Source: Pseudomonadota bacterium (GTDB lineage Bacteria; Desulfobacterota; Desulfobulbia; Desulfobulbales; JAHJIY01). Taken from it: a stretch of DNA of 64,000 nt. The position numbers were made by a program, and so were the translations under genes. A model generated the notes under the pieces. It was not told the origin of the DNA, did not search any database, and worked only from the letters and a program-made list of their open reading frames with translations. Below are positions 18,874 to 62,682 of this stretch, one piece after another. Every line of letters begins with the position of its first letter. The first letter of the stretch is position 1. Location: positions 1-64,000 of the forward strand of contig JAHJIY010000051.1 in assembly GCA_018823175.1 (NCBI GenBank). The letters are read 5' to 3'.

Positions 18874-20295
18874 TCAACTCCTGGCCAGGTTCTTCACGTT
18901 GGTATCACACTGCTGCCGAAGTGAGAGCAACTGTGATTTATATTTCTGATCCCGGGCCAGGTTCCTTTCTTCGCCGGGATCTTTCGCATGATTATACAGT
19001 TCTTCGTAGTTGTTGAATTCCGGATACCGGATGTACTTCCACTCCGTGGTCCTGATCATTTCACTTTTAGGAATCTCCGGATGAGCATAGAGATGTTCAC
19101 AAAAGATTTCATTTCGCCATTTGGTTGCGGCAGGATTTAATAAGTGACAAAGACTCAGACCCTGGACTGATTTCGGCACTGTAATCCCGGCATAATCGAG
19201 AACCGTGGGTGCGATATCGACATTTAATGCCATCTTTCCCAGAGTTTGCCCACCGGCCGGCATCTGTTTTCGCGGGTCATATATGATCAGGGGTATTCTA
19301 ATCGACGGTTCATACATCAGCCACTTGCCGGCCAGGCCTCTTTCGCCCAGAAAATATCCGTTATCACTGAGAAAAATAACGATGGTATTTTCGGCCAGCT
19401 GCAGGCGGTCAAGGGTTTTCATTATTCGCCCCAAGGCTTGGTCGACTCCGGTGATCATCCGGTAGTAGCCTTTCACCATCTGCTGATACTTTTCGGGGGT
19501 ATCAAACCGCCAGTGCCATCTCTTTCTGGCCAGCGAATTCTTTAAAAATTCAGGGGAGGCCTCAAAGATTTCCGAGGCGATCTTCCCCGGCGGCGGAATT
19601 TGAAGATCACGGTAGAAATCATCGGTGGATTGGGGCCAGAAATATTGCTGCGGATCAAGATCTTCGGCGTGGGGGGCGTTAAAACTGACCGAGAGGCAGA
19701 AAGGACGGTCATCGGTATTTGATTCCAGAAAACGGATGGTCTGATCTGCGGTAATCTCGGTCAGGTGCCGCTCGCCATCTTCCCTCTTTTTCAGATACGG
19801 GGTGCGGTCCAAGGGCTCAAAACTGGTAAACATCCGATCAAAATCATGACGGCCCGGATCAACAAAGACACCTAATTTACCGACAAAGCCCGTGCGATAG
19901 CCGGCTTGCTTTAACAGGGTCGGGTAGCTCAGATCAATCAGTGGCCGACTCAAGGGAGGGGTGCCGAAATTATGGCCGTGACTCCGTTCATAAAGGCCGG
20001 TGAAGATACTGGCCCGGCTGGCACAACAGATCGGACTGGTCACAAAGGCATTGGTGAACCTGGTCCCTCTTGCCGCCAGTGCGTCCATCTGCGGGGTGTG
20101 GATAATTGGATTGCCGGCGCAGCCCATGGCGTCCCACCGTTGATCGTCGGTGACGACCAGCAGGATATTAGGACGCGAGATGGACGGATGAGGCTTTTCT
20201 TTACAGCCTTCAAGACCCAGAGCAGAAATGGCGCCCAGGCCATAAAGCGAGGATTGGATAAATTGTCGGCGGCTGTATTTATTGGTCATCATCAA
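18874..20295 (-). CDS. Arylsulfatase-family sulfatase with Tat-like signal (canonical formylglycine motif)
   Basis: SRRQFIQSSLYGLGAISALG signal; ILLVVTDDQRWDAMGCAG; CCASRASIFTG fits C-x-[PA]-x-R. Confidence 0.93.
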   Translation of the reverse strand: MMMTNKYSRRQFIQSSLYGLGAISALGLEGCKEKPHPSISRPNILLVVTDDQRWDAMGCAGNPIIHTPQMDALAARGTRFTNAFVTSPICCASRASIFTGLYERSHGHNFGTPPLSRPLIDLSYPTLLKQAGYRTGFVGKLGVFVDPGRHDFDRMFTSFEPLDRTPYLKKREDGERHLTEITADQTIRFLESNTDDRPFCLSVSFNAPHAEDLDPQQYFWPQSTDDFYRDLQIPPPGKIASEIFEASPEFLKNSLARKRWHWRFDTPEKYQQMVKGYYRMITGVDQALGRIMKTLDRLQLAENTIVIFLSDNGYFLGERGLAGKWLMYEPSIRIPLIIYDPRKQMPAGGQTLGKMALNVDIAPTVLDYAGITVPKSVQGLSLCHLLNPAATKWRNEIFCEHLYAHPEIPKSEMIRTTEWKYIRYPEFNNYEELYNHAKDPGEERNLARDQKYKSQLLSLRQQCDTNVKNLARS

Positions 20296-20344: not shown

Positions 20345-23143
20345 TTAATGGATCATCGATAATCTTGACCGGAAACGGTATGATCCTGCCGGCACCGTCA
20401 ATTCTACTCCATCTAAACCGACTTTCCTAACTTTTATTCCGCTCGCCTCAGCAAGTGGTCTGTCGCTTTCGGTAATTGAGGCGTCAGCAGCGGGCAACCG
20501 GACCAGGGCGCTGGTGTTGGCCGGAACTCTGACCTGCAAGGAAAACATATTGTTCGGATCAATCTGCCAGGCCGATTCAATCCGGCCATAAATCGAATCG
20601 TAGGCGGCGGACACCTGTTTAATGGAAAGATCGCCGACCTGCGGCCTGATCAGGATTTTTTGATAGCCGGGCGCCGCCGCTTCGATCCCGGCCAGATATG
20701 AAAAGAGCCATTCCTGAACCGAGCCAAAGGCATAATGGTTGAATGAATTCATGCCGGGATTGGCAAATCCCTTGGCATAAGTGTAACTATTCCAGCGTTC
20801 CCAGACGGTGGTCGCGCCGTTTGTAATCGGATAAAGCCAGGAGGGATAGCCCTGCTGGCGCAGCAATTTAAAAGCCGTCTCCGAGGCCCCGTTTGCAGAC
20901 AGGGCCGGCAGTAGATGTTTGATCCCCAAAAACCCGGTCGATAAATGAAAGTCCTGCATCTTGATCAGCTCGACCAGGATTTGGGTCGCTTTGATTTTCT
21001 GTTGATCATCGAGCAGCTCCATATCCAGGGCCATGGCATAGGCTGTTTGCGAATTGCCCTTGATCCGGCCTTGCGGATCAATAAATGCCTGGGCAAAGGC
21101 CCTTTTGATATTTGCCGATAATTCTTGATATTGACGCATATCCTCATCTTCACCGATCGCCTGGGCCATCTCACTCATCAGTCGGGCATCATAGGCAAAA
21201 TAGGCGGTGGCAATCACATCACGTGGCGTCTGGGAATCAATCGATTGCCAATCCCCCCAATTATTGCCTTGTGGTTTTCTGATCAAACCGGAACTGTTGG
21301 TCGTTAAATAGTCGATGAATTTCTTCATCGCCCCATAATTCCGGCGGATAATCCTCGTATCGCCATAGGCCCGATAGAGGTTATAGGGGCAGATGATCCC
21401 GGCATCCATCCAGCCGGGTGACGGCTCAAACTGCAGAAACGGCAGCGGGGCAAAATCAGGAAAGGCACCGCTTGGCCGCTGATCATCAAAAAGATTGACC
21501 AGCCATTTTTTAAAAAAGGCGCCTAACTCCATATTGTATAGGGCGGATTTGATAAAGATCTGGGCATCGCCGGTCCAGCCCAGTCTTTCATCACGCTGCG
21601 GACAATCGGTCGGGATATCGAAAAAATTGGAGCGCTGAGTCCATAGGATATTCTGATAAAGTTTATTGAGCAGTGGCTCGGAAGTATTGAATTGACTGAC
21701 GATTGCAGCCGAAGAATGCATGACACTGGCGGTAACGGTTGTCAAATCAGGTTTGCCCTCATAACCGGTCAGTTCCACATACTGAAAACCATGATAGGTA
21801 AAAGTTGGTTCCCATTGCTCCGTTTCACCATCCCCTTTAAGAATATAGGTATCGGTTGCCCGGGCATTGCGCAGGTTTTCGGTCATGATCGAGCCGTTTT
21901 TGTGCAGCATCTCGGCAAACCGCAACTGCACAACCTGTCCCCTTGCCCCCTTGACCTGCAACCGCACCCGGCCGGCGAAATTCTGGCCGAAATTAAAAAC
22001 ATAAACCTTGGGTCGCGGTTCCGTAATCGCAAGGGGAGTCAGGGTCTGCTGCGTCCTGACCGGATTTGCCGGATAGGCCTGCAAGATCAGGTCTTTGTTT
22101 GGAGCAACAACCTGGGCCAACGGCCAGGCGGAATCGTCAAAACCGGCTCTTGTCCACCCGGCCCGCTCAAACCGGGCATCATATTTTTCGCCCATCTGGA
22201 TATCGGTGCTTCGGATCGGGCCGGTGGCCGTTTTCCAGCTGGCATCGGTGGTGATTATTTGTTGCCGCCCATCTTCATAGGTTAACTCCAGTTGCATGAG
22301 CAAGGCCGGAACGTCACCGTAAAAACCCCGATTTTCCATGGGGATCAGATGGGGCGGGATGAAACCGACATAACCGGCGTACCAGCCATTGGCCAGAACG
22401 GCAGTCAGGACGTTTTGCCCGGTTAAAACAAGATTAGTGAGATCATAGGTCAGATAAAAAACCCGCTTGTTATAATTTGACCAGCCGGGGGTAAAGGAGT
22501 CCTTGCCCACCGGTTTACCATTAACCGATACCTCAAAAAGGCCAAGAGCCGAGGCATAAAGGGTGGCTTTTTTCAGAGATGATTTGGATAAAAATTCTTT
22601 GCGAAAGATCGGTGGCGGCGGCAGGTGAAGGTTTTTGTCTTCATTCTCGGCAGAGGTATCGTAGCTGATCCAACGGGCCTGCCAGTCATTTTTTTCAATC
22701 AACCCCATGGTCCAGACGGCCGGGGCGCTCCACGCGGAGACGGTATCACTCTGGTCCCAGCTTCTGACCTTCCAGAAACACTCCTGGCGTGAGGAAAGAG
22801 GATGGCCATGATACTCAATCTGGATGGAGCTGCTGCTCATTACCTTACCGCTGTCCCAGAGATCGCCCTGGTTACGGGTCAATTTGTCTTGGCTGGAAGC
22901 AACCAGGATCTGAAAAGCGATCTGCCGCATTCCCCGCTCCGCGCTCTCCATGATCCAGCTCAGCCGGGGAATTCGATCATCAATCCCCTGCGGGTCTGTC
23001 AAGTATTCGCAACGCAAACCGGTAGCGACATGGGAAACCGAGGCCAGGGCAAAATCAGGCCATAAACAAAACAGGATAGAAATCATCAGCATCATACCTG
23101 TTATTAAGTGCTTGTGACGTGGCATTAGGCCAGTATATTCCAT
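20345..23143 (-). CDS. Alpha-L-rhamnosidase, GH78 family
   Basis: 932 aa; DCPQRDERLGWTGDAQ and GATTVWERWNSY catalytic-domain motifs; N-terminal LRCEYLTDPQGIDDRIPRLSW. Confidence 0.93.
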   Translation of the reverse strand: MEYTGLMPRHKHLITGMMLMISILFCLWPDFALASVSHVATGLRCEYLTDPQGIDDRIPRLSWIMESAERGMRQIAFQILVASSQDKLTRNQGDLWDSGKVMSSSSIQIEYHGHPLSSRQECFWKVRSWDQSDTVSAWSAPAVWTMGLIEKNDWQARWISYDTSAENEDKNLHLPPPPIFRKEFLSKSSLKKATLYASALGLFEVSVNGKPVGKDSFTPGWSNYNKRVFYLTYDLTNLVLTGQNVLTAVLANGWYAGYVGFIPPHLIPMENRGFYGDVPALLMQLELTYEDGRQQIITTDASWKTATGPIRSTDIQMGEKYDARFERAGWTRAGFDDSAWPLAQVVAPNKDLILQAYPANPVRTQQTLTPLAITEPRPKVYVFNFGQNFAGRVRLQVKGARGQVVQLRFAEMLHKNGSIMTENLRNARATDTYILKGDGETEQWEPTFTYHGFQYVELTGYEGKPDLTTVTASVMHSSAAIVSQFNTSEPLLNKLYQNILWTQRSNFFDIPTDCPQRDERLGWTGDAQIFIKSALYNMELGAFFKKWLVNLFDDQRPSGAFPDFAPLPFLQFEPSPGWMDAGIICPYNLYRAYGDTRIIRRNYGAMKKFIDYLTTNSSGLIRKPQGNNWGDWQSIDSQTPRDVIATAYFAYDARLMSEMAQAIGEDEDMRQYQELSANIKRAFAQAFIDPQGRIKGNSQTAYAMALDMELLDDQQKIKATQILVELIKMQDFHLSTGFLGIKHLLPALSANGASETAFKLLRQQGYPSWLYPITNGATTVWERWNSYTYAKGFANPGMNSFNHYAFGSVQEWLFSYLAGIEAAAPGYQKILIRPQVGDLSIKQVSAAYDSIYGRIESAWQIDPNNMFSLQVRVPANTSALVRLPAADASITESDRPLAEASGIKVRKVGLDGVELTVPAGSYRFRSRLSMIH

Positions 23144-23155
23144 CTTGGAAAATTA

Positions 23156-24802
23156 TCACCAGTATCCGGTCTTTCTTATCCTGTTCTGGGTGGCGGGATC
23201 GATATTGGGCGCAAATTGATATTCCTGGTCCGTATAGTCTGGCAAGGAGTCCAGATGTTTCTTCAACTTCTGCCGCAACTCCTGATAGACTTCGGGCGCC
23301 TCATTTTTAATGTTTTTTAACTCGTCCGGATCACTATTCAGATTAAATAACAGATCTTTTTCCCCAATTTTTTTCGTCAGATCCTTGCGCACCACCACCA
23401 GCTTCCACTCCACTGAGCGCAGATAGGCAAAATCATTATTCTCGCCGTAAACATATGTCCGGTCCACCACGTCCCCGGTTCCGGTGATTAACGGCAGAAA
23501 ACTTTTGCCATGCAGGTTAAATGGTTTCTCCATGCCGACCACATCGAGGATGGTCGGCATGATATCGATACTCTGCACCATGTCTTTTACTTCCTTGTGT
23601 TCAGACCCCCGTGGCATCTTGATGATCAACGGCACATGGACCTGTTGATCATAATATTCCATACCATGCCCGATAATGCCGTGCTCACCGTGAGATTCCC
23701 CATGATCGCCGGTAACGATCACCATGGTCTTGTCGAAGATCTTTTCCTTTTTCAGGGTGGCGACGATCGATTTGACAATTTCCTGGTCGATCCCCAGAAT
23801 GCAGGCGTCATATAATGAAATAAAATAAGCCAGATTTTCCGGGTCGGATTTATCGATTGACTCGTTATAGGTTTTCATCATCAGATGGCCAAGCTTGATC
23901 CGCTGGTCCGGGATGGTCAGTTCCTCGAGCTTGCCAAACTTCATCTCATCGTATGTGCCGTCAAATACTTCCGGGTTATCCTTAATCGTTGCCGGCGTAA
24001 ATAACTCACTGGCAATGGACCCGGACTGATTCATCGTGTTAATGACAATTTCATAGACCTTCTCCCGCAACTCTCTGAAATTGGCGATAATCGTCCCCTT
24101 TTTCCCGGTCTTGAAGGCATCGCGATACGGCGGCAGGGGGAAATACGGACCATGGGTATGCCGGATATTCATGGCGACAAAAAAAGGCTTTTTCTTATGC
24201 TCACTGATCCATTTCGGGATTTCCTCTTTGCCGTTTAATTGCAGATCAAGGTAATGGGTCGAATCAAATCCCCGGCCAAAACCGGCGTCGAGCGCCAGAT
24301 GCGGCTCATCGAGGACCGCAAACCAGGCGGTTTGATAATCATAAATCTTGAAGAGCTCAGCCAGAGTTTTGACCCGGGGGGAAAGTTTATCCTTAAAGGA
24401 AAAATACACCTTATGAGACTGCGGATAAATCGAGGTCAGAATCGAGATCATACTCGGGAAGGTGTAGCCGGCCTGGGCAAAAGCATTCCTGAACTGATAC
24501 GAACTCTTGGCCAGTTCATCGATCGCCGGGGTGGTCTGCCGCTCATATCCGTAACAGCTCAGGTGATCATCGCGCAAAACATTGATCGTAATCAGGATGA
24601 CGTTGGTATCCCGGCCGATTTCCGCTATTTCTCCCTTTGGCTCGGCATGAAGTTCGTAGGGTTGCATAATGACCAGAAACACGCTGCACAAAAAGGCACC
24701 CACCATTCTGATTGATAACTTCTTAAACGAAGTAAACTTCATTTTATTACCCCTTAAATCTTCCACTCTATCCCCCACTTGGCACGCACTGGTAATTATC
24801 AA
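23156..24802 (-). CDS. Sulfatase-fold hydrolase/transferase lacking the formylglycine motif
   Basis: NVILITINVLRDDHLSCYGYERQTTPAID; TFPSMISILTS at the CxPSR position; MVIVTGDHGESHGEHG. Confidence 0.88.
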   Translation of the reverse strand: MIITSACQVGDRVEDLRGNKMKFTSFKKLSIRMVGAFLCSVFLVIMQPYELHAEPKGEIAEIGRDTNVILITINVLRDDHLSCYGYERQTTPAIDELAKSSYQFRNAFAQAGYTFPSMISILTSIYPQSHKVYFSFKDKLSPRVKTLAELFKIYDYQTAWFAVLDEPHLALDAGFGRGFDSTHYLDLQLNGKEEIPKWISEHKKKPFFVAMNIRHTHGPYFPLPPYRDAFKTGKKGTIIANFRELREKVYEIVINTMNQSGSIASELFTPATIKDNPEVFDGTYDEMKFGKLEELTIPDQRIKLGHLMMKTYNESIDKSDPENLAYFISLYDACILGIDQEIVKSIVATLKKEKIFDKTMVIVTGDHGESHGEHGIIGHGMEYYDQQVHVPLIIKMPRGSEHKEVKDMVQSIDIMPTILDVVGMEKPFNLHGKSFLPLITGTGDVVDRTYVYGENNDFAYLRSVEWKLVVVRKDLTKKIGEKDLLFNLNSDPDELKNIKNEAPEVYQELRQKLKKHLDSLPDYTDQEYQFAPNIDPATQNRIRKTGYW

Positions 24803-27942: not shown

Positions 27943-29238
27943 TCAAACACAGTCAACCGGACTTTCACCCTGCCCGGCCTCGTCCCCTGCCCTGACCGGC
28001 CGGCCATCATTTGCCAGCAACTGCCAGGTGAAAGGATTATAGGTGATGCCGCCGCCGTCTTCCTGTCGGCTTTTGATATGAACAACATAAGACCATTGCC
28101 GGCAATCATAGGCGATATCGGTAAAGGAACTGCCGTATTCATCCGGCCAGATCCCGATGCTGACATAATAATCGCCGGCCAGCAGGTTTAGCTGATCGTA
28201 CCGCAGCAAGATTTCACAATCCCCTTCCAGTTCACCCAGATCAACCTTGGCCCGGGAAGTGTTGGTCCCGTGGACCCAAAGCCCGTCATTGCGGAAAAAC
28301 TGGATCCGGAATACCGGATTATAAACTTTTTTAGTGCAGTGAAAACCGATCCTCACCTGCATCTGCTCCCCGGTCTTGAAGGTGTCGTTTTCGACGCCGT
28401 GCCGGTCGGCAAACACTACCTGTCGAAACTTGATCTCCTTGGTATCGATCCCGTACACATTTTCGGGATTGAACGGATGGAGAGACCGGGGAATCTTGTT
28501 CTGCTCCCGTTCGCAGATATCCCAGTAATCCTTGAGGACCATCTCGGTCTGGCCGTCATGCTTGACCAGGCCTTCTTTCAAGAAAATAACCCGCTGACAG
28601 ATCGCCGAAACATCCCCCAGATTATGGGTGGCAAGGATGATGGTCTTGCCCTGGCTGAGAAAACTTTTTATTTTGGCCAGACATTGACGCTGAAAAACAA
28701 TATCCCCGACCGACAGGATCTCATCCATCAGCAGAATATCAAAATCCATATGCATGGCAATCGAAAAACCGAGGCGGATCACCATCCCGGTGGAGTACGT
28801 ATTGATCGGATGTTCAATATATTCGCCCAAGCCGGAAAAGTCGATGATCTGGTCGAGACGCTGGACAATCTCTTTTTTCCGCAAACCATAAAGGGCGCCT
28901 TTCAGATAGATATTCTGAATGCCGGTCATCCTCGGATGGAGCCCGCTCTGGATATCAAGGATGGTTGAGATCCGGCCGTTGACTTCCACTCGGCCCTCAC
29001 TGGGACTGACGATCCCGGCCAGAATCCGCAACAGAGTGCTTTTGCCGGAGCCGTTCCGGCCGATCAGGCCCAGACACTGGCCGGCCGGGACCTCGAAACT
29101 TACATCCTCCAGGGCGACATTGTTCCTTGCCTCCGCCCTGCTACGGTCAAAACCCGTAAACAGACTTGCCAACCTCGACTTCCGGGAATTATAAGTCGGG
29201 TAATACTTGGCAATATTTATAACTCTTACCTGGGCCAC
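27943..29238 (-). CDS. ABC transporter ATP-binding protein, polysaccharide/O-antigen export (Wzt-like, with C-terminal carbohydrate-binding-like domain)
   Basis: GLIGRNGSGKSTLLRILAGI; YSTGMVIRLGFSIAMHMDFDILLMDEILSVGD; Wzt-C-like tail. Confidence 0.9.
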   Translation of the reverse strand: MAQVRVINIAKYYPTYNSRKSRLASLFTGFDRSRAEARNNVALEDVSFEVPAGQCLGLIGRNGSGKSTLLRILAGIVSPSEGRVEVNGRISTILDIQSGLHPRMTGIQNIYLKGALYGLRKKEIVQRLDQIIDFSGLGEYIEHPINTYSTGMVIRLGFSIAMHMDFDILLMDEILSVGDIVFQRQCLAKIKSFLSQGKTIILATHNLGDVSAICQRVIFLKEGLVKHDGQTEMVLKDYWDICEREQNKIPRSLHPFNPENVYGIDTKEIKFRQVVFADRHGVENDTFKTGEQMQVRIGFHCTKKVYNPVFRIQFFRNDGLWVHGTNTSRAKVDLGELEGDCEILLRYDQLNLLAGDYYVSIGIWPDEYGSSFTDIAYDCRQWSYVVHIKSRQEDGGGITYNPFTWQLLANDGRPVRAGDEAGQGESPVDCV

Positions 29239-29361
29239 GTTTACATCCAGAATTTTTCAATCAATCAGCCATCCCGGCGGAGCATGCTCACCAGAACTCC
29301 ATAACTGCTCACAAAATAGACGCTAAAAATCCGCCAATCTCACAGGGAATAAGAAACAAGT

Positions 29362-30156
29362 TTAAACCAGATCAACAACTTCCCGGCAGGTCTTTTGATA
29401 AAAAATGCCGCCGATCATCAGGACCACCACCGTATGCAGAGCAAACCAGGTGATATCAATTATAGCCGGCAACCGTTGAAAAAGCAGTAAATCACGGTAG
29501 ATCGCAGTAAGACTGACCAGAGGATTCACCCAGCGCATGGTCAGAAACCAGGGCAGACTCTCAACCGTAAACACAATCGGCGAAGCAAAAAACCAGATGG
29601 TCAGCATCGCGATGGTCAGGTGTGAAATGTCGCGCAGGAACACATGGGCCGTTGAAATCAGCATGGTCAGCCCCCAGCAATAAAGAATTTGCAGAGGCAG
29701 GATTAAAGCGATCAGAACAAAAGAGATCCCGACTTCATGGACAAAAAATATTTTCACCCCCATAAAGACGATAATCGCCAGAATCCCGGAAACAGTGGCG
29801 GAGATCACGATATGCAGCGGCAGGATATAGAGCGGCAGTTTATGATTTCTGATTAAATGCGCATGATCGAGCAAGACGGTTGAACCCCGCTGCACCGACT
29901 CCTGAATGACAAACCAGGGCAACATTCCGGCAAACACATACAAGCCGAAATAAGAAGTGTTACCGGCGCTGCTGTTTTCCGGTGGCACTACCGAGGAAAA
30001 TATCAGCACATAAATCCCGGCAATAATCAGGGGCTTGATCATCGCCCAGACAAACCCCAGAATTGACCCGAGGTACTGACTGCGGAAATCATGGGCCGCA
30101 AAGGTCCAGATCAAAAAACGGTTGGCAGCTAATTCTTTAAATATATTCAACGGCAT
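29362..30156 (-). CDS. ABC transporter permease, polysaccharide export (Wzm/TagG-like)
   Basis: ABC-2 type membrane protein directly downstream-coupled to the Wzt-like gene. Confidence 0.9.
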   Translation of the reverse strand: MPLNIFKELAANRFLIWTFAAHDFRSQYLGSILGFVWAMIKPLIIAGIYVLIFSSVVPPENSSAGNTSYFGLYVFAGMLPWFVIQESVQRGSTVLLDHAHLIRNHKLPLYILPLHIVISATVSGILAIIVFMGVKIFFVHEVGISFVLIALILPLQILYCWGLTMLISTAHVFLRDISHLTIAMLTIWFFASPIVFTVESLPWFLTMRWVNPLVSLTAIYRDLLLFQRLPAIIDITWFALHTVVVLMIGGIFYQKTCREVVDLV

Positions 30157-30968
30157 TCCTCAGGATATAACTCGATCATCAGAGGGTCATTTTTCGCTTG
30201 CCGGATAAAATCAGACAAGGACGGGTCATCCTGATTACAATAACTTCTGCTCCGATCAATCATGGAGCACACTTCATCGATCCCGTCAGTTTCAGAAATC
30301 CCGAGATAGCCGGCAACAGAAAGCAGGGACTCTTCCGGTCTGGCCAGCAGGTCTTCATAAATCAACTGGTGGAGATCAACCCCGCTCCCGGCATAGGACA
30401 AGCCCCTTTTAACATAGCAGCCCCACAACGACAGACAGCCGGCCAGATCCTGGCACCGGGCAGAGTAATGATGATGCGAGCGGCCTTCCGGCCGACTGGT
30501 TTCCCGCCGCCAGAGGCTGACCGAAACATCAACCGCATTTCGGATAACATGGATGACTTTTGCCTTAGGGAAACGCTCCAGCCAGAACGGCAGGGTAAAG
30601 GTATTCCGGGGATCTTTAAAACCCCAGGCCAAGGCGGGATAGGCTGATCCTTTTTCCTGTCCGAAAGATGGCTGGCCCCAATACAACCGGAAAAAATTAT
30701 CGTCGACTACGGCTTCAACTTTGCGGGCAGCCCGCCGGCATCTTGATTGATCAGTAAATAAAGAGCCAAGCCGCTGAGCATCATCCCATTTACAATTTTC
30801 CAGCTTCAGCATCTGTTCATTTAATAACTGGAAGCAGATCGATTCATTGCTGTCATCTTTGACACAACCCCAGAATACGCCAATTTTCTCAAGCAGACGA
30901 GTCAGCAGACTTGTGCCGGAGCGATGCATGCCGATGATGATTACCGGCGGAACAGGATTTTCCTTCAT
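30147..30968 (-). CDS. Sulfotransferase family protein
   Basis: 5' PAPS-loop-like IIIGMHRSGTSLLTRLL; AKVIHVIRNAVDVSVSLWRRE. Confidence 0.8.
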   Translation of the reverse strand: MKENPVPPVIIIGMHRSGTSLLTRLLEKIGVFWGCVKDDSNESICFQLLNEQMLKLENCKWDDAQRLGSLFTDQSRCRRAARKVEAVVDDNFFRLYWGQPSFGQEKGSAYPALAWGFKDPRNTFTLPFWLERFPKAKVIHVIRNAVDVSVSLWRRETSRPEGRSHHHYSARCQDLAGCLSLWGCYVKRGLSYAGSGVDLHQLIYEDLLARPEESLLSVAGYLGISETDGIDEVCSMIDRSRSYCNQDDPSLSDFIRQAKNDPLMIELYPEECR

Positions 30969-31070: not shown

Positions 31071-31790
31071 TTATTTTGCGGCTTTGACCAACTTGCCCTT
31101 TTGAAACAGGCCACATGATTCAAGGCCCTTCGGATCGAACTCACAACCAATTCCTTCCAGAATTCCGCCCTGCCATGATCCGGTGGTGATGCGTTTATCC
31201 GGCCAGAGCATGGTCCCCTTGCCCTGCATCTCCCCCTTGACCCATTGCCCCGAATATGTTCTGCCGTCCGGCCAGGTCATCGTTCCCATGCCGTCAAATG
31301 CCTCTTCGCGGAAACTACCAACATAGACCAGACCTTTCGGGGTAAATAATGTTCCCTGGTTGCCGACTTTACCCTTTTCAAAAACGCCGACAAAAAAACC
31401 GCCTTCCTTGAAAACCATCTTGCCGGTGCCGTCAGGTTCGCCATCGGTGAATTGGCCGGTGTAGGTATCGCCATAAGGCGTTACTATCGTGCCCTCGCCG
31501 TTGTATTTGCTGCCGTCGAATTCACCGATATATTTCCGGCCATCCGGATAGATCTCGGCGCCATGACCGCGCCATGCCCCCTCGAAAAATTCGCCGATAT
31601 ATTTATTGCCGTTTGGCAGGATGGCCCGGCCGTAACCGCTTGGCTTGCCTTCTTGCCATGCTCCTTCATATTTATGGCCGTCCGGTAATTCAAAAGTGCC
31701 CAGCCCGTCCTGACAGTTTCCGCTGATACATTCCGTGTGGCCAATCATCGGGATCATTACAATAAACAATACAACAAAAATCTGTTTCAT
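31071..31790 (-). CDS. MORN-repeat protein
   Basis: Tandem YxGxxxxGxxxGxG units (YEGAWQEGKPSGYGRAILPNGNKYIGEFFEGAWRGHG...). Confidence 0.92.
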   Translation of the reverse strand: MKQIFVVLFIVMIPMIGHTECISGNCQDGLGTFELPDGHKYEGAWQEGKPSGYGRAILPNGNKYIGEFFEGAWRGHGAEIYPDGRKYIGEFDGSKYNGEGTIVTPYGDTYTGQFTDGEPDGTGKMVFKEGGFFVGVFEKGKVGNQGTLFTPKGLVYVGSFREEAFDGMGTMTWPDGRTYSGQWVKGEMQGKGTMLWPDKRITTGSWQGGILEGIGCEFDPKGLESCGLFQKGKLVKAAK

Positions 31791-31942: not shown

Positions 31943-32003
31943 AAATGACGGGTAACAAGGGGAAAAACTCGTTACTATTTACTCGTTACTTGTCACTTCC
32001 ATG
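31943..32003 (+). repeat. Copy 2 of the shared upstream element
   Basis: gacgggtaac...gaaaaactcgttactatttactcgttacttgtcacttccATG; ends at the start codon of the downstream gene. Confidence 0.85.
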
Positions 32004-33626
32004 ATAAAACATAAGAAAAACAAGATTATGCGTCCTATAAACTATAACTTCTCCGTCAGTCTGCTCCTCATCTTTCTGTATCTGTCTTCCCCCAAATTCT
32101 GTCACGGATCGACGGTCGAAGGTCTATCCCCCGAAGAGATGCCCAATATCGTTTTCATCTGGATTGACACCCTCCGGGCCGACAGCCTGGGCTGTTACGG
32201 TTACCAAAGAGATACCTCGCCCAACATTGACCAGTTAGCCAAAGAATCAACCCTCTTCATGAATAATTTCACGCCGCACACCGTGACCCTTTCCAGTTTC
32301 ATGTCGATCATTACCGGACTCTACCCTTTCTCCCATGGGGTGCTGCATATCGCCAAAGATATTCTTTCCCCCAAGATCAAGACGCTGGCCGAGATTCTTC
32401 AGATGTATGGTTTCGCGACTTCATGGTATGGGCCTAATGATCCGCATCTTGATAACAAAGTGGGTTTTGGCCGGGGATTTGATTATATCGATAACTTCGA
32501 CAACGATCTGGCGGTTGGCCGGAGCAAGGTTTTACGGGCGATCGAACGCAACAAGGACCAGAAATTCTTTCTTAACTTCCACTCATATCATGTCCATTCC
32601 CCCTATATCCCGTCCGAAAAATACATCTATCAATTTACCAAGCATAAAGATGTCGGCGTCCTTGAAAGCTTTGATGCAATCGAAAAGGCCACGGTCGAAG
32701 TCATCCGGCAGGGCGTCTTCAATTACCAGAAATACCCCTATGAAATCCTCGGTCCCGAGTTGCTTAAAGAAATGGCCGAGGCCGACCTTTTTGCTCATGA
32801 TTACAAAATAACCGCCGTAAAAATCAGGCGTTATCTCCAAAGAAAAAATCTTGAATATAAATATGATGAAATTGCCAACAAGGTCTACGAATCAAGGATC
32901 AATCCCGACAATAAGGAAAACATTGCATACCTTAAAGCCCTTTATGACGCGGGGATTCTCGAATTTGACACCGAAGTAATCGGCCCGGTAATCAATAAAC
33001 TCAAGGAACTGGATTTATACGACAACACCATGATCATCATCTGCGCCGATCATGGTGAAGAATTCGGCGAACATGGCAGCTCCGGCCATGGCATGAGCCT
33101 GTATCAGGAGGTGACCTGGGTCCCTTTGATCATCAAAACAGCCGGCCGGAAAGAAGGCAGCAAGATTGAAGAACTAAGCCAGACCGTTGATATAATGCCG
33201 ACCATTCTGGGGCTTTTAAAAATCAAACCGCCCTACCATAATCAGGGAATCGACTTCACCCCCCTGATCAATCAAACCGGCGACTTTACTCCTCGTAAAT
33301 ACGTCTACGGCCAAATGCCCTATTTCAAGGCGATCCGAACGAAGGAATGGAAGCTCCATGTTTTTCACAGCTTCCTGGCTATTCCCTGGCTCAGCGAATC
33401 AGTCCGAACCACGATTTTCGGCAAGAGAGAACTGTTCAACACCGAAAATGACCCCGATGAGCAAAACGACCGCTATGCAAAAGAACCAAAGGTCAGAGAT
33501 GAGCTCACCACCGAGCTTGAACAATGGGGTAAATCCCTGAAAAACTACCAGGATACCGACTATTCCTTTCAACCGAATATTGACAAAAAGACCAAAGATA
33601 AAATCAAAAAAACCGGCTACTGGTAA
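32001..33626 (+). CDS. Sulfatase-fold hydrolase/transferase lacking the formylglycine motif
   Basis: NIVFIWIDTLRADSLGCYGYQRDTSPNID; TVTLSSFMSIITG at the CxPSR position; MIIICADHGEEFGEHG. Confidence 0.9.
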   Translation: MIKHKKNKIMRPINYNFSVSLLLIFLYLSSPKFCHGSTVEGLSPEEMPNIVFIWIDTLRADSLGCYGYQRDTSPNIDQLAKESTLFMNNFTPHTVTLSSFMSIITGLYPFSHGVLHIAKDILSPKIKTLAEILQMYGFATSWYGPNDPHLDNKVGFGRGFDYIDNFDNDLAVGRSKVLRAIERNKDQKFFLNFHSYHVHSPYIPSEKYIYQFTKHKDVGVLESFDAIEKATVEVIRQGVFNYQKYPYEILGPELLKEMAEADLFAHDYKITAVKIRRYLQRKNLEYKYDEIANKVYESRINPDNKENIAYLKALYDAGILEFDTEVIGPVINKLKELDLYDNTMIIICADHGEEFGEHGSSGHGMSLYQEVTWVPLIIKTAGRKEGSKIEELSQTVDIMPTILGLLKIKPPYHNQGIDFTPLINQTGDFTPRKYVYGQMPYFKAIRTKEWKLHVFHSFLAIPWLSESVRTTIFGKRELFNTENDPDEQNDRYAKEPKVRDELTTELEQWGKSLKNYQDTDYSFQPNIDKKTKDKIKKTGYW

Positions 33627-43923: not shown

Positions 43924-44985
43924 TCACAGGCGGCCGCTTGTCGCCTCAATGATCTCGGCAATAATTTCTTCAATGCGGTATGACTTGTGCCACTCGGGAT
44001 AATGGGCCTCAAATTTTCGGGTATCGCTGATCCACCAGATATGATCCCCGATCCGGTTATCGTCAGAGATTGTGAATTTCAGCTGCCGACCGGTTTTTTC
44101 CTGGATCAGGGCAATGGCCTCAAGCACCGAACAGTTGCTGGCTCTGCCGCCCCCGATATTGTATACCTCGCCGGGCCGCGGATTTCTGATCACCTGCCAG
44201 AAAGCGGCAACCAGGTCGTTTGAATGAATATTGTCCCGCACCTGCTTGCCTTTATAGCCGAAAATTGTATAAGGGATGTCCGTTACGGCGCATTTGACCA
44301 GATAAGCCAGAAACCCGTGGAGCATGGTGCCGGAATGGGCCGGCCCGGTCAGACAGCCGCCGCGAAAAGTGACGGTGTTCATCCCAAAGTATCGACCATA
44401 TTCCTGGACCATGATGTCGGCCGCAATCTTTGAGGCGCCGAAGATACTATGCTTGCACTGATCAATCGACATCATCTCATCAATCCCGAATTTAAAATAG
44501 GGATGCTCCTTAGCAAGCTCCCACCGTAACTCCCGCTCAACCAGGGGGAGGGAGTTCGGCCGATCGCCATAGACCTTGTTGGTGCTGGTGAAGATAAAGA
44601 CCGCCGCCGGGCAGAAGGTCCGCGTCACCTCAAGCATATTCAAGGTACCGACCGCGTTGACCGAAAAATCGGTGTGCGGTTCCTTGGCGGCCCAATCATG
44701 GGATGGCTGGGCGGCGCAATGGATCACCGCCTTGATCCTGCCGCCATATCGTTTAAATATCTTACCCAGCTCATCATAGTCCCTGATATCCACCTGATAA
44801 TGGCTATAGTTTGCCAGCCCAACCTGAAGCTGCTCTTTCTGCCACGAGGTGGAGCCGTCTTCACCGAAAAAATACTTTCGCAGATTATTGTCAATGCCGA
44901 CCACCTCAAAGCCCAGCTCATGGAAATATTTGGCTGACTCACTGCCGATCAGGCCGGCGGAACCGGTTATTATAATGACGTCCAT
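43924..44985 (-). CDS. NAD-dependent sugar epimerase/dehydratase (CDP-paratose 2-epimerase-like)
   Basis: Rossmann [14 protein letters not shown]; YxxxK-type [20 protein letters not shown]. Confidence 0.88.
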
Positions 44986-45050: not shown

Positions 45051-46196
45051 TCAAAGTATTTCTTCGACCTGTGCCCTGTTTTCCTGCAGCCAGAGATGAA
45101 TATCTCCGACCATCTTCCAAACACTTTTTTCCGGTTGCCAACCAAATACTGACTGGGCCCGCGAACAATCACTCACATAATATGGGATATCAACTTTATT
45201 TGTTTCTGGATCGGAGTTGATCTCTATTTTATTACCAGTCACCTCCTGGCAGATCCCGGTATATTCCAGCAGAGAGACGGAGTTAGCAAGACCGCCACCG
45301 ATATTAAAAACTTCACCGGAATACTTGGCCATAACCGGTAGCTGCTTAATGATCAGAGAGAACAAATCAGCGGGATGCAGCAGATCTCTGACCTGTTTGC
45401 CGATGCCGCCAAAACCGGTATATCTCAGCTTTCGTTTAAAAAAGTGGTTTGCCACCCACAAGGCGAACACGCCCTGATCGGTTTTGCCCCATTGTCCGGG
45501 CCCGGCAATTACCCCGCAACGATTAATCATCGCCTTTAAATTAAAGGCGGCGCAGTATTCCTGGATCAAGAGTTCAGAGGCCAGTTTGGTCGCACCGTAA
45601 AGGGAGCGATAGCGGGCAACATTGAACTCCTCATTAATCCCTTTGGCCGTCAAGCCATGTGGAAGTGGGTTCTGATCGTTAATTTCGAGCCTGGTTTCCT
45701 GTTCAACCAAAGGCAAGGCCAGCAGGTCCGGAATTGAATAAACTCTTGAGGTAGAGATGAAAAACATCGCCTCGCACTGCCTTCTGGCAAATTCCAGGCA
45801 ATTAAAAGTGCCACGCAGATTGGTATCAAAAAGATAATTACAATCCCCGCCGGTACCGGCCAGAACCGATGGCTCGGCCGAGGCTTCAATAAACAGATCA
45901 AAGGAATCAGCCAGGGCTGAGAAATCTGACTGACTGCGGATATCACCATGAACAAACTCAATCCCAGCTTTCTTAAAAATTGGCAGATTGAGTTCAGATC
46001 CCCGCCGCCTTAAATTGTCAAACACAACAATCTTGTTTTGCGGAGCATTCTCCTTAAACAAACGGGCCAGACTGCTCCCGACAAACCCTGCCCCGCCGGT
46101 GATCAATATTTTCACTTTACCTGTCTCCTGAATATTACCGAGGTGATTCCTGACCCGGTTTTTCTTCGCCGCAAGCGGCAGATTATCATCGGGCAA
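45051..46196 (-). CDS. NAD-dependent sugar epimerase/dehydratase (paralogue of neighbour)
   Basis: ILITGGAGFVGSSLARLF; YGATKLASELLIQEY; GKQVRDLLHPADLFSLI. True start may be MKILITGG. Confidence 0.87.
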   Translation of the reverse strand: MPDDNLPLAAKKNRVRNHLGNIQETGKVKILITGGAGFVGSSLARLFKENAPQNKIVVFDNLRRRGSELNLPIFKKAGIEFVHGDIRSQSDFSALADSFDLFIEASAEPSVLAGTGGDCNYLFDTNLRGTFNCLEFARRQCEAMFFISTSRVYSIPDLLALPLVEQETRLEINDQNPLPHGLTAKGINEEFNVARYRSLYGATKLASELLIQEYCAAFNLKAMINRCGVIAGPGQWGKTDQGVFALWVANHFFKRKLRYTGFGGIGKQVRDLLHPADLFSLIIKQLPVMAKYSGEVFNIGGGLANSVSLLEYTGICQEVTGNKIEINSDPETNKVDIPYYVSDCSRAQSVFGWQPEKSVWKMVGDIHLWLQENRAQVEEIL

Positions 46197-46454: not shown

Positions 46455-48437
46455 ATGAAACATAAAATCCTGCCAACATTTATTTCAAGATTAATCCTTT
46501 TGATGGTCGTAGGGACAACCCTGCTTTCATGCACCAACAGCAAGGGCCCATCACTTGCCGATCTCACCAAGGATACCGGCATCATTTTCCCTGAGGCCAA
46601 GAGCTTTCTTCTCCAGAAAAACATCACCCGGCCCGGAGAGAACCGCACTTTTCAGACAATTAAGGCAAGCGGCAACCAGAAACTATTAAAAATTGAGATC
46701 ATCTCGCCAATTGAGCTGAACGACGCCCGCCAGATCATCAAGGAAAGATTCAACATCGTTGATTCACTTTACACCAACCTGCCCTCCCCTTATCCGGGAA
46801 TGTTGACCAGGGAAATCGAATACCCCGAAAAACTGCGCCCGGAATACCAACTAGTCAACATCCCTTCCCAGAAAATCCCTCTTTATCTGTTGGCAAGCAA
46901 TGATCGCTACAGTTACGGGGCCATGGCCGAAGAAATGGTCACCTTCATGGGGTTTTTCACCTTTATCTACAATCCCGAACAGAAATCCCTCTCTCGCCTG
47001 GATTATTTTGTACCAAAGGTGCAATACGACAAAAAGGAAGTCCTGCGCTTTGCCGAAAATATCAGACTGACGAAAAAATCCCCGCAGATCGATCTTAGCG
47101 TGGCGCTCTCGGACGATAAATCAACTGCTCCCGATAAACAGGCCGAGACAGTCGAACCCCAAACCGTTACCACAGCGGGGTCGGCCACGATCCGGCAGAA
47201 TAACTTAAACGTCATCATCATCGGTTTTGAGCCCCTTGGTTCCAGACATGTCGGGGCCTATGGCTACGACAAGGACACCACCCCCTATCTGGATACCTTT
47301 GCCAAAGACGCCTTTCTTTTTAAAAATGTGGTCAGTCCCTCAAGCTGGACCCTGCCGGTTTTCATGTCCTGGTTCACTTCGCTTTACCCCAGCCGGCATC
47401 GGATCACCAATAAATACAGCAAAGTGACCGACAGCGAGCAGAAGCTGGCCAATTTATCGGAACAATCGCCGGAGGTTATCACCCTGGCCGAGATCATGAA
47501 GGCCCAGGGCTATCAGACCGCGGGATTTACCGGCGGGGCCGGAGTTTCCAGCGACTTTGGTTATGCCCGGGGTTTTGATCTTTACTACGATCAGCAGACC
47601 TTCGCCGGTTTCGACCAGACGATGCCCATGGCCCTCGACTGGCTTAAAGATCACCGGCAGAATAATTTCTTTCTATTTGTGCAGGGCTACGATGTCCATG
47701 GCCGGTTTCCACTCGATGAAGAAGGTAAAGAAAAATTCATCGACAAGGAATACCAGGGCAAGCTGCAGGGAACGACGGATGAATACTGGGCGCTGAGAGA
47801 CCAGAATATTGATCAGGGAAAACTGGATCTGGACGAGGGAGATATCAAATTCCTGCAATCAATTTACGATGCAAAAATTTCCGCCGCCGACCGCCGCTTC
47901 GGCAGCTTCATCAAAGGGCTACAGGAGATGGGCCTCCTTGAAAACACCGTGATTGTGATCTCGTCAGGGTCCGGCAATGAATATTACGAACACCGGAGAA
48001 TTGATCACGGCTTCAGCCTGTATGAAGAGCTGATCCAGGTGCCGCTGATCATCAGGATGCCGAAGATAACCGGCTCGACCAAAAATCTGGTCCGGACCAT
48101 CGATATCATGCCGACCATTCTTGATCTGCTTAAAATTAAAACTCCGCAAAGCCAGGCACAAATGGAGGGCGTCAGCCTCCAGCCCTTGATGAAGGGCGAA
48201 ACATTGGAACTAGACGGCTTTGCCGAAACCGATTACCTGCTGCAGAGTTTTAAACGATCAATCACGACCAATGACGGCTGGAAATTCATCATCTCCCTGG
48301 ACACCGACGAACGGGAATTATACGACCTGAATCATGACCCGGATGAACAAAAAAACGTGCTAGGAACCAACGGCAGGATCGCCTACGAACTTGAGCAGAA
48401 ACTCTTTTCCCACCTGGCGGAGATTAACCGGAAATAG
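46455..48437 (+). CDS. Sulfatase-fold lipoprotein, probably catalytically degenerate
   Basis: LLSCTNSK lipobox; NVIIIGFEPLGSRHVGAYGYDKDTTPYLD; SSWTLPVFMSWFTSLYPSRH; VIVISSGSGNEYYEHRRIDHGFSLYEE. Start moved to MKHKILPT. Confidence 0.85.
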   Translation: MKHKILPTFISRLILLMVVGTTLLSCTNSKGPSLADLTKDTGIIFPEAKSFLLQKNITRPGENRTFQTIKASGNQKLLKIEIISPIELNDARQIIKERFNIVDSLYTNLPSPYPGMLTREIEYPEKLRPEYQLVNIPSQKIPLYLLASNDRYSYGAMAEEMVTFMGFFTFIYNPEQKSLSRLDYFVPKVQYDKKEVLRFAENIRLTKKSPQIDLSVALSDDKSTAPDKQAETVEPQTVTTAGSATIRQNNLNVIIIGFEPLGSRHVGAYGYDKDTTPYLDTFAKDAFLFKNVVSPSSWTLPVFMSWFTSLYPSRHRITNKYSKVTDSEQKLANLSEQSPEVITLAEIMKAQGYQTAGFTGGAGVSSDFGYARGFDLYYDQQTFAGFDQTMPMALDWLKDHRQNNFFLFVQGYDVHGRFPLDEEGKEKFIDKEYQGKLQGTTDEYWALRDQNIDQGKLDLDEGDIKFLQSIYDAKISAADRRFGSFIKGLQEMGLLENTVIVISSGSGNEYYEHRRIDHGFSLYEELIQVPLIIRMPKITGSTKNLVRTIDIMPTILDLLKIKTPQSQAQMEGVSLQPLMKGETLELDGFAETDYLLQSFKRSITTNDGWKFIISLDTDERELYDLNHDPDEQKNVLGTNGRIAYELEQKLFSHLAEINRK

Positions 48438-60208: not shown

Positions 60209-61783
60209 TCAGGATTTTTTCGGCAATATCAAAAATGAAATCACCGCATTGAGCGGATAGATCGCGGCCAGGACCGAGTAGACCGCCGCGATCTCAATAA
60301 ATCCATGCGACCCGGCCCAATAAACGACAAAAAGGCTGTAAACCGCCATCAGCCATTCACAGGCATTTATTTTTTTCAGGGTCCGGACACTGGTCCCGGC
60401 CGGAACTACACCGTCACTATTATTCGGGCCCGCCCCCCCCTTTCCGGTCCGGTCACGATGAACCTTGACCCCGGTCAATCCTTCAAGCAGTCCGTATGAC
60501 AGAGTAATAAACAAGGCGGTCATCAGACCGAAGGCAAACACGGTGTCTGAAAAGGAAAAGCCCGGCCCTGCTTCCGGCCTTTTTTCATCTTTTACACCCA
60601 GGCGCATGGCGAAAAACGGGATATGAGTCAGGGCCAGCAGCAGCGGAAGCAGCAAAATAAATTTATGAAAAAGATATGGGTCGGCAAGCACGCGCCAGAA
60701 ATAATACGCCGGGATCAAGGTCAGGTGCGAGATAACCATGAACAGCGCCTGCAGCGAAAAAACCAGGAAAAATTCCATGGTCATGATCCGCTGCCCGAGG
60801 CTCAGATGAGATGATTTTAATACCGGCCCCAACTGCTTGCGCATTACCTCCATTAAGCCTTTCATCCAGGAGCGCTGCTGGAGTTTAAATTCGTTATAAC
60901 CGGCCGGCAGCATGCTTGGGCAGGAAACCTGGTCAGTGTAAATAATCCGCCAGCCTTTGGCCTGGGCGGCAAAGCTCAAGTCCACATCCTCGATCTGGGT
61001 ATCGCCCTGCCAGAATCCGGCCTCTTGCATGGCCAGATAACGCCAGCTGCCGGCCGACCCTTTAAAGGTGGTGAGATGATTACTCGCACTACGGCCGGCA
61101 AAATCAACCCGGTGGATATTCTCCTGAAAAACGGCCGCCGCCCGGGTCAGGATATTGTCATTTTTATTGGCATAAGTCATGTCCGCCTGGACCGCGCCGA
61201 CCACCGGATCGGCAAAATAGCCCACCACGCTTGACAGATAATTTTCCGGGACCAGAAAATCCGCGTCAAAGATGGAGACAATTATCTCGTTCGGGTTAGA
61301 CTCACCCTGCTGCCTGAAAATTTTCATCGCTTCATGCAGGCCGAAATTCAGATTGCCGGCCTTGAAATCCGTCCGTTCCGTCCGGTGCAGGTAGACCAGG
61401 GACAAATCATTGATCTTGGTATTTTTTAGCCGGACATATTCCTGGAGCGCAAAGGAGATCTCCGCCCGATCCGAATCATCCAGCAGCTGAATCAGGAGTT
61501 TATCGGCCGGATAATCAACGGCGCAAGCCGAGTCAATCAGCCTCTTGACCATCCCGACATCTTCATTAAAAACAGGGAGCTGAATAAGCTGCCGGGGCAG
61601 ACGGTCATCAGCATGGGCCTGGGGATTTCCGAACCTTGCTTCTCTGCGGTGAGCAACAAAAATCAAATAAATAAAAAATGGCGGGTGCAGCAGAAAGCCG
61701 ACCACGGCAAGAACAAAACAGATAAAAAACGGGAGCAATAACAGCTCAGCCATCGAGATCACTTCTTTCCATGTCCTTCCCAC
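60209..61783 (-). CDS. Membrane-bound family 2 glycosyltransferase
   Basis: DSDRAEISFALQEY; ISIFDADFLVPENYL; TQIEDVDLSF; QQRSWMKG; C-terminal TM segments. Confidence 0.92.
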   Translation of the reverse strand: MGRTWKEVISMAELLLLPFFICFVLAVVGFLLHPPFFIYLIFVAHRREARFGNPQAHADDRLPRQLIQLPVFNEDVGMVKRLIDSACAVDYPADKLLIQLLDDSDRAEISFALQEYVRLKNTKINDLSLVYLHRTERTDFKAGNLNFGLHEAMKIFRQQGESNPNEIIVSIFDADFLVPENYLSSVVGYFADPVVGAVQADMTYANKNDNILTRAAAVFQENIHRVDFAGRSASNHLTTFKGSAGSWRYLAMQEAGFWQGDTQIEDVDLSFAAQAKGWRIIYTDQVSCPSMLPAGYNEFKLQQRSWMKGLMEVMRKQLGPVLKSSHLSLGQRIMTMEFFLVFSLQALFMVISHLTLIPAYYFWRVLADPYLFHKFILLLPLLLALTHIPFFAMRLGVKDEKRPEAGPGFSFSDTVFAFGLMTALFITLSYGLLEGLTGVKVHRDRTGKGGAGPNNSDGVVPAGTSVRTLKKINACEWLMAVYSLFVVYWAGSHGFIEIAAVYSVLAAIYPLNAVISFLILPKKS

Positions 61784-62682
61784 TCATAATTATGATGCCC
61801 GACCTTGCCGGTTTCCGCTGCGGCGGCGGCAAGATCGGTCCGTCTCGCGGCCAGCCAGGCCCGGCCGATCACGGCATGAAGCTGCAGCGACAGAAGGGCG
61901 AAGCGTAAATTCCCCTTCAGCAATCCATCATAAAACAGCTGCCGGACCAGAACAAATGCACTCTGCCATACCGTGAGCTTGTTCTGGAAGCATTTATTTT
62001 TTTTCTGGGCCAGAAATCCCCAGAAACAGTGGCGAAAGGTCATCTTTTTGATCGTCTGCGCGGAGTCTTGCCGCTGATGATAAACCAGGGCTTCTGGATT
62101 GTAGGCCAGGAGATAACCCAGTTTTCTGAGCCGGAAGGAGATGTCCATATCTTCGCCACTAGTCCGAAACAACTCATCAAAACCACCAACCTGGGCCAGC
62201 GCCTCCTTGCGGTAAGCAGCGCACATCCCGAACAAGAAAAAGACCTCGGCCCGAAAGTTATCACCCCATTCCTGAAAAAGGACCTCCCGGCGCCACTTGT
62301 CGTAGATGTTTTTCTGGACGACTTCCAGAGCGCGGCCATTAACCCCGGCCACATTCTGCCGGGAAAACGGGGCGATTATCTCCTCGATATAAACCGGCGC
62401 GGCAATGGCATCAGCGTCAAGAAAGACAATGATCTCGCCTTGCGCCTGGGCAATCGCGGTATTTCTGGCGGCGGCGATCCCAAGGTTGGTTGGATGGGCA
62501 ATCAACCGCACACCGGGAAATTGCCCAACCAGCTTTCTTGTGTTATCAATAGAACCGTCATCGATGACGATTATTTCATCGGGCTTCCTGGTTTGTTGCA
62601 GAACGGAATCAATTACCGGTTTGATGAATATCTCCGCATTGAAACAAGGGATGACCAGGCTGACTGAAAAATTATCTGACAT
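61759..62682 (-). CDS. Family 2 glycosyltransferase
   Basis: SLVIPCFNAEIFIKPVIDSVLQQTRKPDEIIVIDDGSIDNT; VFLDADAIAAPVYIEE; FRTSGEDMDISFRLRKLGY. Confidence 0.92.
   Translation of the reverse strand: MSDNFSVSLVIPCFNAEIFIKPVIDSVLQQTRKPDEIIVIDDGSIDNTRKLVGQFPGVRLIAHPTNLGIAAARNTAIAQAQGEIIVFLDADAIAAPVYIEEIIAPFSRQNVAGVNGRALEVVQKNIYDKWRREVLFQEWGDNFRAEVFFLFGMCAAYRKEALAQVGGFDELFRTSGEDMDISFRLRKLGYLLAYNPEALVYHQRQDSAQTIKKMTFRHCFWGFLAQKKNKCFQNKLTVWQSAFVLVRQLFYDGLLKGNLRFALLSLQLHAVIGRAWLAARRTDLAAAAAETGKVGHHNYEWEGHGKK

What the first reader, a model, noticed from the sequence alone, without database searches (positions are those of the whole stretch)
46455..48437. Likely dead sulfatase-fold lipoprotein (pseudoenzyme) beside two sugar epimerases
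Besides Thr at the nucleophile, the usual Asp-His metal pair is gone: VTGDHGESHGEHG in the paralogue corresponds to ISSGSGNEYYEH here (D-H to G-S), and the first metal Asp aligns with Glu (IGFEPLG vs IDTLR). Fold-defining stretches (GAYGYDKDTTPYLD, VDVHG-type segment, VPLIIRMPK, TIDIMPTILDLL) are kept, and there is an extra ~250 aa N-terminal region. This suggests selection for a non-catalytic role such as scaffold, sensor or binding.
Basis: partly seen in the sequence, partly recalled or inferred. Interest (0 to 1): 0.7.

Follow-up and report, generated by a model that had tools for sequence, protein, structure and literature searches.

The report
Conserved dead sulfatase paired with phosphodiesterase
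This bacterial envelope protein has the fold of a sulfatase but has lost half of its metal site, and the whole broken-looking site has been preserved in at least eleven relatives from several phyla, always in genomes that also carry one particular intact phosphodiesterase, so it is probably a long-lived non-catalytic partner protein rather than a decaying gene.

Summary
ORF 46455-48437(+) is a 660-aa exported protein with a sulfatase-fold domain (Pfam E 1.1e-34) in which S-D-H-G has become S-G-S-G and the first metal Asp has become Glu, with Thr at the nucleophile position. It is not recent decay. A 50%-identical paralogue in the same genome and nine orthologues from Deltaproteobacteria, Omnitrophota and another phylum all carry SS(G/A/P)SGNE(Y/F) or a one-letter variant, and share an N-terminal domain that matches no Pfam or NCBIfam family. 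Seven relatives without that domain keep D and DHG and form a well-supported sister clade. The remodelled pocket is the most conserved part of the protein. New: in 243 genomes of the class, a PF01663 phosphodiesterase with an intact site occurs in exactly the five that hold the pseudoenzyme; it is also in all five holders from elsewhere, directly adjacent in four. Best reading: an exported non-catalytic, ligand-binding partner or sensor for that phosphodiesterase in envelope-glycan or sulfo/phospho-ester metabolism. The epimerase neighbours are a lesser clue. The mechanism is inferred; site geometry and binding were not testable here. It works like YejM/PbgA but is not a member of that family.

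The parts
46455..48437 (+). Pseudosulfatase ORF, 660 aa, exported, probable lipoprotein
   Evidence: Open frame; Pfam Sulfatase E 1.1e-34; AF2 model matches solved sulfatases, Foldseek E 3e-23
46455..46532 (+). Sec signal with lipobox-like LLSC, Cys26 at 46530-46532
   Evidence: Sequence. L038, L049 and L043 also have a lipobox-like Cys; L022, L039 and L040 have a hydrophobic anchor instead: export conserved, lipidation not
46542..47069 (+). N-terminal alpha+beta domain, residues ~30-205, found only fused to this pseudosulfatase; conserved PYPG loop (P112-G115) and RxxYG (R151-G155)
   Evidence: A4 search of 145 genomes hits only these proteins; no convincing Pfam, NCBIfam or PDB sequence match; AF2 pLDDT 87.7; weak PsbP/Mog1-like Foldseek hits
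47070..47198 (+). Low-confidence linker, residues ~206-248
   Evidence: pLDDT 30-42 over residues 220-250; variable in the alignment
47208..48134 (+). Degenerate sulfatase/alkaline-phosphatase-superfamily domain, residues 252-560
   Evidence: Pfam, structure search
47229..47231 (+). E259, in place of the first metal Asp (E in 8, D in 3 of 11 members; D in all 7 intact sisters)
47349..47351 (+). T299, nucleophile position (T in 9, S in 2 of 11)
47697..47699 (+). H415 of YDVHG, substrate-site His, kept in 11 of 11
47964..47984 (+). S504-Y510 SGSGNEY, in place of (S/A)DHGTE; D and H metal ligands lost, N508 new and invariant
48006..48008 (+). H518 of DHGFSLY, kept in 11 of 11
45051..46196 (-). 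SDR sugar epimerase/dehydratase neighbour (76% identical gene in the G135 locus, about 6 kb from its pseudosulfatase)
43924..44985 (-). SDR sugar epimerase/dehydratase neighbour (80% in G135; 71% in G113)
32001..33626 (+). Sulfatase paralogue with intact D, T, DHG; context also shared with G113 and G135
23156..24802 (-). Sulfatase paralogue with intact DHG but Asn at the first metal position; context shared with G113 and G135
27943..30968 (-). Wzt-type ATPase, ABC-2 permease and sulfotransferase; polysaccharide export/sulfation context, homologues near the pseudosulfatase in G113
60209..62682 (-). Two GT2 glycosyltransferases; homologues next to the pseudosulfatase in G135 and G113

Best explanation
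The gene encodes a conserved pseudoenzyme of the alkaline-phosphatase/sulfatase superfamily. An ancestor related to Thr-type, intact sulfatase-fold enzymes lost the Asp-His half of the metal site, and its descendants carry a private N-terminal domain. The remaining pocket (Thr/Ser299, Glu/Asp259, His415, His518, Asn508) was kept and remodelled, most likely to bind an anionic (sulfated or phosphorylated) glycan or ester without cleaving it. It probably works outside the cytoplasm as a ligand-binding regulatory or substrate-presenting partner of a membrane-anchored PF01663 phosphodiesterase that accompanies it in every genome examined, with the N-terminal domain and its invariant PYPG loop as a candidate docking surface. 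Shown: fold, loss and fixation of the loss, domain fusion, pocket conservation, co-occurrence and adjacency with the phosphodiesterase. Inferred: absence of activity, ligand binding, physical contact with the phosphodiesterase, docking role of the loop.
For: 11 of 11 members have lost D505-H506 and share N508, against 7 of 7 intact sisters without the domain. Tree: sister clade 100/99; degenerate set on one side of one branch, 72/74; both together 98/99. The pocket motifs are far more conserved than the rest of the domain (0.865 against 0.662; 0 of 406 circular shifts reach it), and 5 of the 6 columns that are fixed differently in the two clades lie in the site. Phosphodiesterase in exactly the 5 of 243 class genomes that hold the pseudosulfatase, 1 in C(243,5) = 1.5e-10 if genomes were independent, and in all 5 holders reached outside that sample, but no close copy in the 7 genomes with only the intact sister. 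The two genes are adjacent on the same strand in G535, G622, G624 and G625; in G625 the two frames overlap at ATGCTCACTAA. The phosphodiesterase keeps PDG, HTP and SDHG. dN far below saturated dS, as for intact sister pairs.
Against: No binding, activity or interaction data. Co-occurrence could reflect a shared pathway without contact. In G020 and G623 the two genes are far apart, and the window copy itself is on a different contig from the only phosphodiesterase of its genome. The genome holds two pseudosulfatases to one phosphodiesterase. Monophyly of the degenerate clade is only moderately supported (72/74).
Confidence: 0.5

Rival explanations
1. It is still an enzyme, with a rewired site: Thr299 as nucleophile with a single-metal or metal-free arrangement using E259, N508, E509, K320, H415 and H518, and the phosphodiesterase acts before or after it in one pathway.
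For: H415, H518 and K610 are kept in 11 of 11, T/S at 299 and E/D at 259 in 11 of 11, K320 in 10 of 11. YejM, with a partly altered site, is reported to be a Mg-dependent phosphatase (PMC7576196).
Against: Both D505 and H506, the equivalents of the C-terminal Asp-His pair of LtaS (D475/H476, PMC7576196), are replaced by G/A/P and S, which offer no carboxylate or imidazole; T is replaced by S in two members.
Confidence: 0.2
2. It is a sensor or regulator of envelope polysaccharide or lipid synthesis in the manner of YejM/PbgA, and the phosphodiesterase belongs to the same pathway without direct contact.
For: YejM is a sulfatase-fold protein described as lacking properly placed catalytic residues and as sensing lipid A (PMC7773988). 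The window copy lies among export ATPase/permease, sulfotransferase, sulfatase and glycosyltransferase genes, partly conserved in G113 and G135.
Against: No multi-pass membrane or cytoplasmic part through which a signal could pass; the co-occurrence is with a phosphodiesterase, not with an LPS-control protease; NCBIfam YejM score 34.5 against a cut-off of 825.
Confidence: 0.2
3. Recent decay: a pseudogene in progress, kept open by chance.
For: Active-site residues are lost.
Against: Same substitutions fixed in 11 sequences from several phyla at 43-67% identity; full-length frames; purifying selection. One member (G625) has an in-frame TAG between the domains but both parts are otherwise conserved.
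Confidence: 0.02
4. The association with the phosphodiesterase is a by-product of horizontal transfer of one gene island (importer, BASS transporter, phosphodiesterase, pseudosulfatase) whose parts have separate jobs.
For: SsuA/TauT-like importer and BASS transporter genes accompany the phosphodiesterase in six genomes; patchy distribution.
Against: In the Omnitrophota loci and in G535 only phosphodiesterase and pseudosulfatase were seen together; in G020 and G623 the pair is kept although unlinked.
Confidence: 0.15

Closest known systems
YejM/PbgA/LapC (NCBIfam NF038282)
   Same: Sulfatase/LtaS-like periplasmic fold with Thr at the nucleophile position and an altered C-terminal metal motif (YejM site residues given as D268, T302, N403, R451, H468 in PMC7576196); described as a lipid A sensor without proper catalytic residues (PMC7773988)
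   Different: YejM has a five-helix membrane domain and acts on LapB/FtsH; here a single signal or anchor, a private N-terminal domain, a different replacement (SGSGNE), and a phosphodiesterase partner; score far below the YejM cut-off
Thr-type sulfatase-fold relatives with intact site (sister clade: L011-L013, L079-L082)
   Same: 42-50% identity over the sulfatase domain; share NK, DxHG, RxDHG, LYxEL and C-terminal ETDY motifs
   Different: Keep the first Asp and the Asp-His pair; lack the N-terminal domain; no close phosphodiesterase in their genomes
Choline sulfatase and S1 arylsulfatases (PDB 6g5z, 7stt, 9fo1)
   Same: Overall fold, Foldseek E about 1e-22
   Different: They use formylglycine from Cys or Ser and an intact metal site (general knowledge of the family); about 20-24% identity
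LtaS, EptA/MCR phosphotransferases
   Same: Thr nucleophile and Glu at the first metal position (LtaS E255/T300; EptA E240/T280, PMC7576196)
   Different: They keep the C-terminal Asp-His pair (D475/H476 in LtaS), lost here; no multi-pass membrane domain here

Membership tests
Sulfatase superfamily (PF00884), fold level | Profile match over the curated cut-off and sulfatase fold | tested here: met
   120.5 bits against 25; Foldseek E 3e-23
Type I (formylglycine) sulfatase | C/S-x-P-x-R nucleophile motif | tested here: not met
   S-W-T-L-P-V; T in 9, S in 2 of 11 members, no Arg
Active sulfatase/phosphotransferase of this superfamily | C-terminal D-H or D-N metal pair | tested here: not met
   G/A/P-S in 11 of 11
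Active sulfatase/phosphotransferase of this superfamily | First metal Asp or Glu | tested here: met
   E in 8, D in 3 of 11
YejM/PbgA/LapC | Curated model score | tested here: not met
   34.5 bits against 825
YejM/PbgA/LapC | Five-helix N-terminal membrane domain | tested here: not met
   One N-terminal hydrophobic helix, then an alpha+beta domain
YejM/PbgA/LapC | Sensing of an envelope lipid or glycan | not testable with these tools
   Needs binding data
PsbP/Mog1-like domain (N-terminal part) | Significant structural match | tested here: inconclusive
   DcrB prob 0.85, PknH ectodomain 0.80, MTC28 0.72, but E 0.06-0.2 and TM at most 0.46
Pseudoenzyme | Conserved loss of catalytic residues under purifying selection | tested here: met
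Pseudoenzyme | No catalytic activity | not testable with these tools
   Needs assay

The most novel reading that the evidence does not exclude
A two-protein envelope system of the alkaline-phosphatase superfamily in which a dead sulfatase, fused to a new domain, is the obligate regulatory or substrate-presenting subunit of a live phosphodiesterase, analogous in logic to pseudokinase-kinase pairs.
Probability: 0.35. Interest if true: 0.7.

Novelty: new variant of a known kind. Interest (0 to 1): 0.52.

Why it matters
Pseudoenzymes are well described for kinases, while for the sulfatase fold YejM is the one case I compared with, and a literature search for inactive sulfatase pseudoenzymes returned no bacterial family. 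This family gives a clean natural experiment: two sister clades, one intact and one remodelled, with the loss tied to a new domain and to a partner enzyme. It makes a concrete test possible of how a hydrolase pocket becomes a sensor or a subunit, and it warns that genes annotated 'sulfatase' by profile in such loci need not be sulfatases.

Tried and rejected
Recent decay: rejected. Assembly error at the motif: rejected, same motif in 11 sequences from different genomes and contigs. Neighbouring epimerases as the functional partners: weakened; close relatives of them were seen near the pseudosulfatase only in G135 and (one of them) G113, several kb away. Metal-site geometry: not possible, the prediction tool releases no coordinates (checked). 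N-terminal domain by sequence: no convincing match in Pfam, NCBIfam or PDB. A base rate of D-H loss over other PF00884 hits of the order was tried with a pattern, but the pattern missed legitimate variants such as SDYG and SDHL, so it is not used. Plasmid search found only ordinary sulfatases at under 30% identity. dS is saturated for nearly all pairs, so dN/dS values are only bounds.

Full report
Observation. Pfam assigns residues 252-560 to Sulfatase (E 1.1e-34) and 512-656 to SGSH_C. The predicted structure (pLDDT 75.9) matches solved sulfatases over about 460 columns with E near 1e-22. The site is as described: Glu259 at the first metal position, Thr299 at the nucleophile position, Gly505-Ser506 in place of Asp-His.

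Is the degenerate site old? The genome has seven sulfatase-fold hits. One of them, C55:79.5-81.5 kb (L022), is a full-length paralogue at about 50% identity with the same VVSSGSGNEYF and AFEPLG. Searches of genome collections gave nine further members: L038 (67%), L049, L039, L040 from the same order; L061 from the same phylum; L041, L042, L044 from Omnitrophota MAGs; and L043 from CP070682. All eleven read SS(G/A/P)SGNE(Y/F) or TSGSGNEY, and F/L-(E/D)-PLG. All have the N-terminal domain (in L041 it is separated by an in-frame TAG). Seven relatives at 42-50% identity (L011-L013, L079-L082) lack that domain and read FDA(L/M/V)Q and (S/A)DHGTE, i.e. intact. A tree made without the site columns puts the intact set in one clade (100/99) and the degenerate set on one side of a branch with moderate support (72/74); the two together are separated from other sulfatases with 98/99. 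Three members (L041, L044, L061) keep Asp at position 259, so the Asp-His loss is the common feature and Asp-to-Glu the less universal one.

Selection. Frames are full-length across 43-67% identity; dN is 0.24 between the closest pair against a saturated dS, in the range of the intact sister pairs. The motifs around the former active site are the best conserved part of the domain: mean majority fraction 0.865 against 0.662 elsewhere, reached by 0 of 406 circular shifts. Six columns are invariant in each clade but different between them, and five of these (260, 262, 300, 506, 508) are in the site. H415, H518, D517, E509 and K610 are invariant, K320 nearly so; Q410 replaces, in nine of eleven, a His that all sisters have. 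A protein kept as a mere scaffold would not be expected to keep the pocket this way; a repurposed binding site would. This step is inference.

The N-terminal domain. It folds confidently by itself (pLDDT 87.7, beta-beta-beta-alpha-beta-beta-beta-beta-alpha with short terminal elements). It was found only fused to this family in 145 genomes and has no convincing match in Pfam, NCBIfam or PDB sequences. Foldseek gives only weak hits, several of them PsbP/Mog1-like (DcrB, PknH ectodomain, MTC28, PsbP; that these share a fold type is my own knowledge). The PYPG loop (112-115) is invariant yet low in model confidence, which would fit a docking site; this is inference.

Partner. Neighbourhoods were compared among all loci. 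In the C55 locus and in G038, G135, G113, G622, G624, G625 and G535 a gene of about 700 aa sits nearby; Pfam calls it PF01663 Type I phosphodiesterase, with PDG, HTP and SDHG intact wherever the sequence is complete and remote similarity to ENPP enzymes. A search of 243 genomes of the class with this protein finds it in exactly G000, G020, G038, G113 and G135, which are exactly the genomes with the N-terminal-domain pseudosulfatase. It is also in G535, G622, G623, G624 and G625, all holders of the pseudosulfatase, and no close copy is in G052, G028, G037, G774, G787, G720 or G881, which hold only the intact sister. If genomes were independent the class result would have a chance of 1.5e-10; they are not, but holders are spread over three families of the order and other phyla. 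The genes are adjacent on the same strand in four genomes; in G625 the ATG of the pseudosulfatase overlaps the end of the phosphodiesterase frame, which suggests translational coupling. In six genomes a sulfonate/taurine-type ABC importer and a BASS transporter accompany the phosphodiesterase or the pseudosulfatase.

The window itself. The window copy lies in a polysaccharide region: Wzt-type ATPase and ABC-2 permease, sulfotransferase, three other sulfatases, glycosyltransferases and the two epimerases. Parts of this set are near the pseudosulfatase also in G113 and G135, where the phosphodiesterase lies in the same stretch. In the window's genome the two halves are on different contigs: copy 1 with the polysaccharide genes, copy 2 with phosphodiesterase and importer.

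Mechanism. Most likely the protein binds an anionic glycan or ester in the former active site and works with the phosphodiesterase outside the cytoplasm, as a regulatory or substrate-presenting partner. Steps shown: fold, loss, fixation, pocket conservation, fusion, co-occurrence, adjacency. Steps inferred: no activity, ligand class, physical contact. The nearest working analogue is YejM/PbgA, a sulfatase-fold protein whose enzymatic status is disputed (metalloenzyme according to PMC7576196; lipid A sensor lacking proper catalytic residues according to PMC7773988). Membership in YejM is not met.

Novelty. A literature search for bacterial inactive sulfatases found none, within the limits of the held library. 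The kind (pseudoenzyme of this superfamily) is known; the family, the domain fusion and the link to a phosphodiesterase appear new.

Noticed in passing
L005 / L054:4603-6279 (own genome C55); also L056:1960-3675, L057, L058, L026, L093:4651-6762: A second sulfatase family with a degenerate site in the same loci: first Asp is Gln (SLQCLRPDH) and the Asp of DHG is Ile (HSIHGED); the G535 relative keeps the first Asp but has STHGED. Next to an MBL-fold hydrolase in the own genome, and beside the intact sister or the pseudosulfatase elsewhere.
   Followed up: partly
L041:1070-1072 (G625): In-frame TAG between the N-terminal and sulfatase domains in an Omnitrophota MAG; true split, low-coverage error or stop recoding not decided.
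   Followed up: partly
window 23156-24802 (-): In-window sulfatase with intact DHG and Thr but Asn at the first metal position (ITINVLR).
   Followed up: no
L053:16783-18999 and L054:163-3308: Conserved set: SsuA/TauT-like ABC importer, BASS transporter and PF01663 phosphodiesterase in six genomes; substrate unknown.
   Followed up: partly
window 20345-23143 (-): Alpha-L-rhamnosidase (GH78-type domains) next to an S1-type sulfatase (18874-20295), suggesting a sulfated rhamnose glycan is degraded or trimmed.
   Followed up: no
window 31071-31790 (-): Exported MORN-repeat protein, homologue directly beside the pseudosulfatase in G113 (L059:10766-11527).
   Followed up: no
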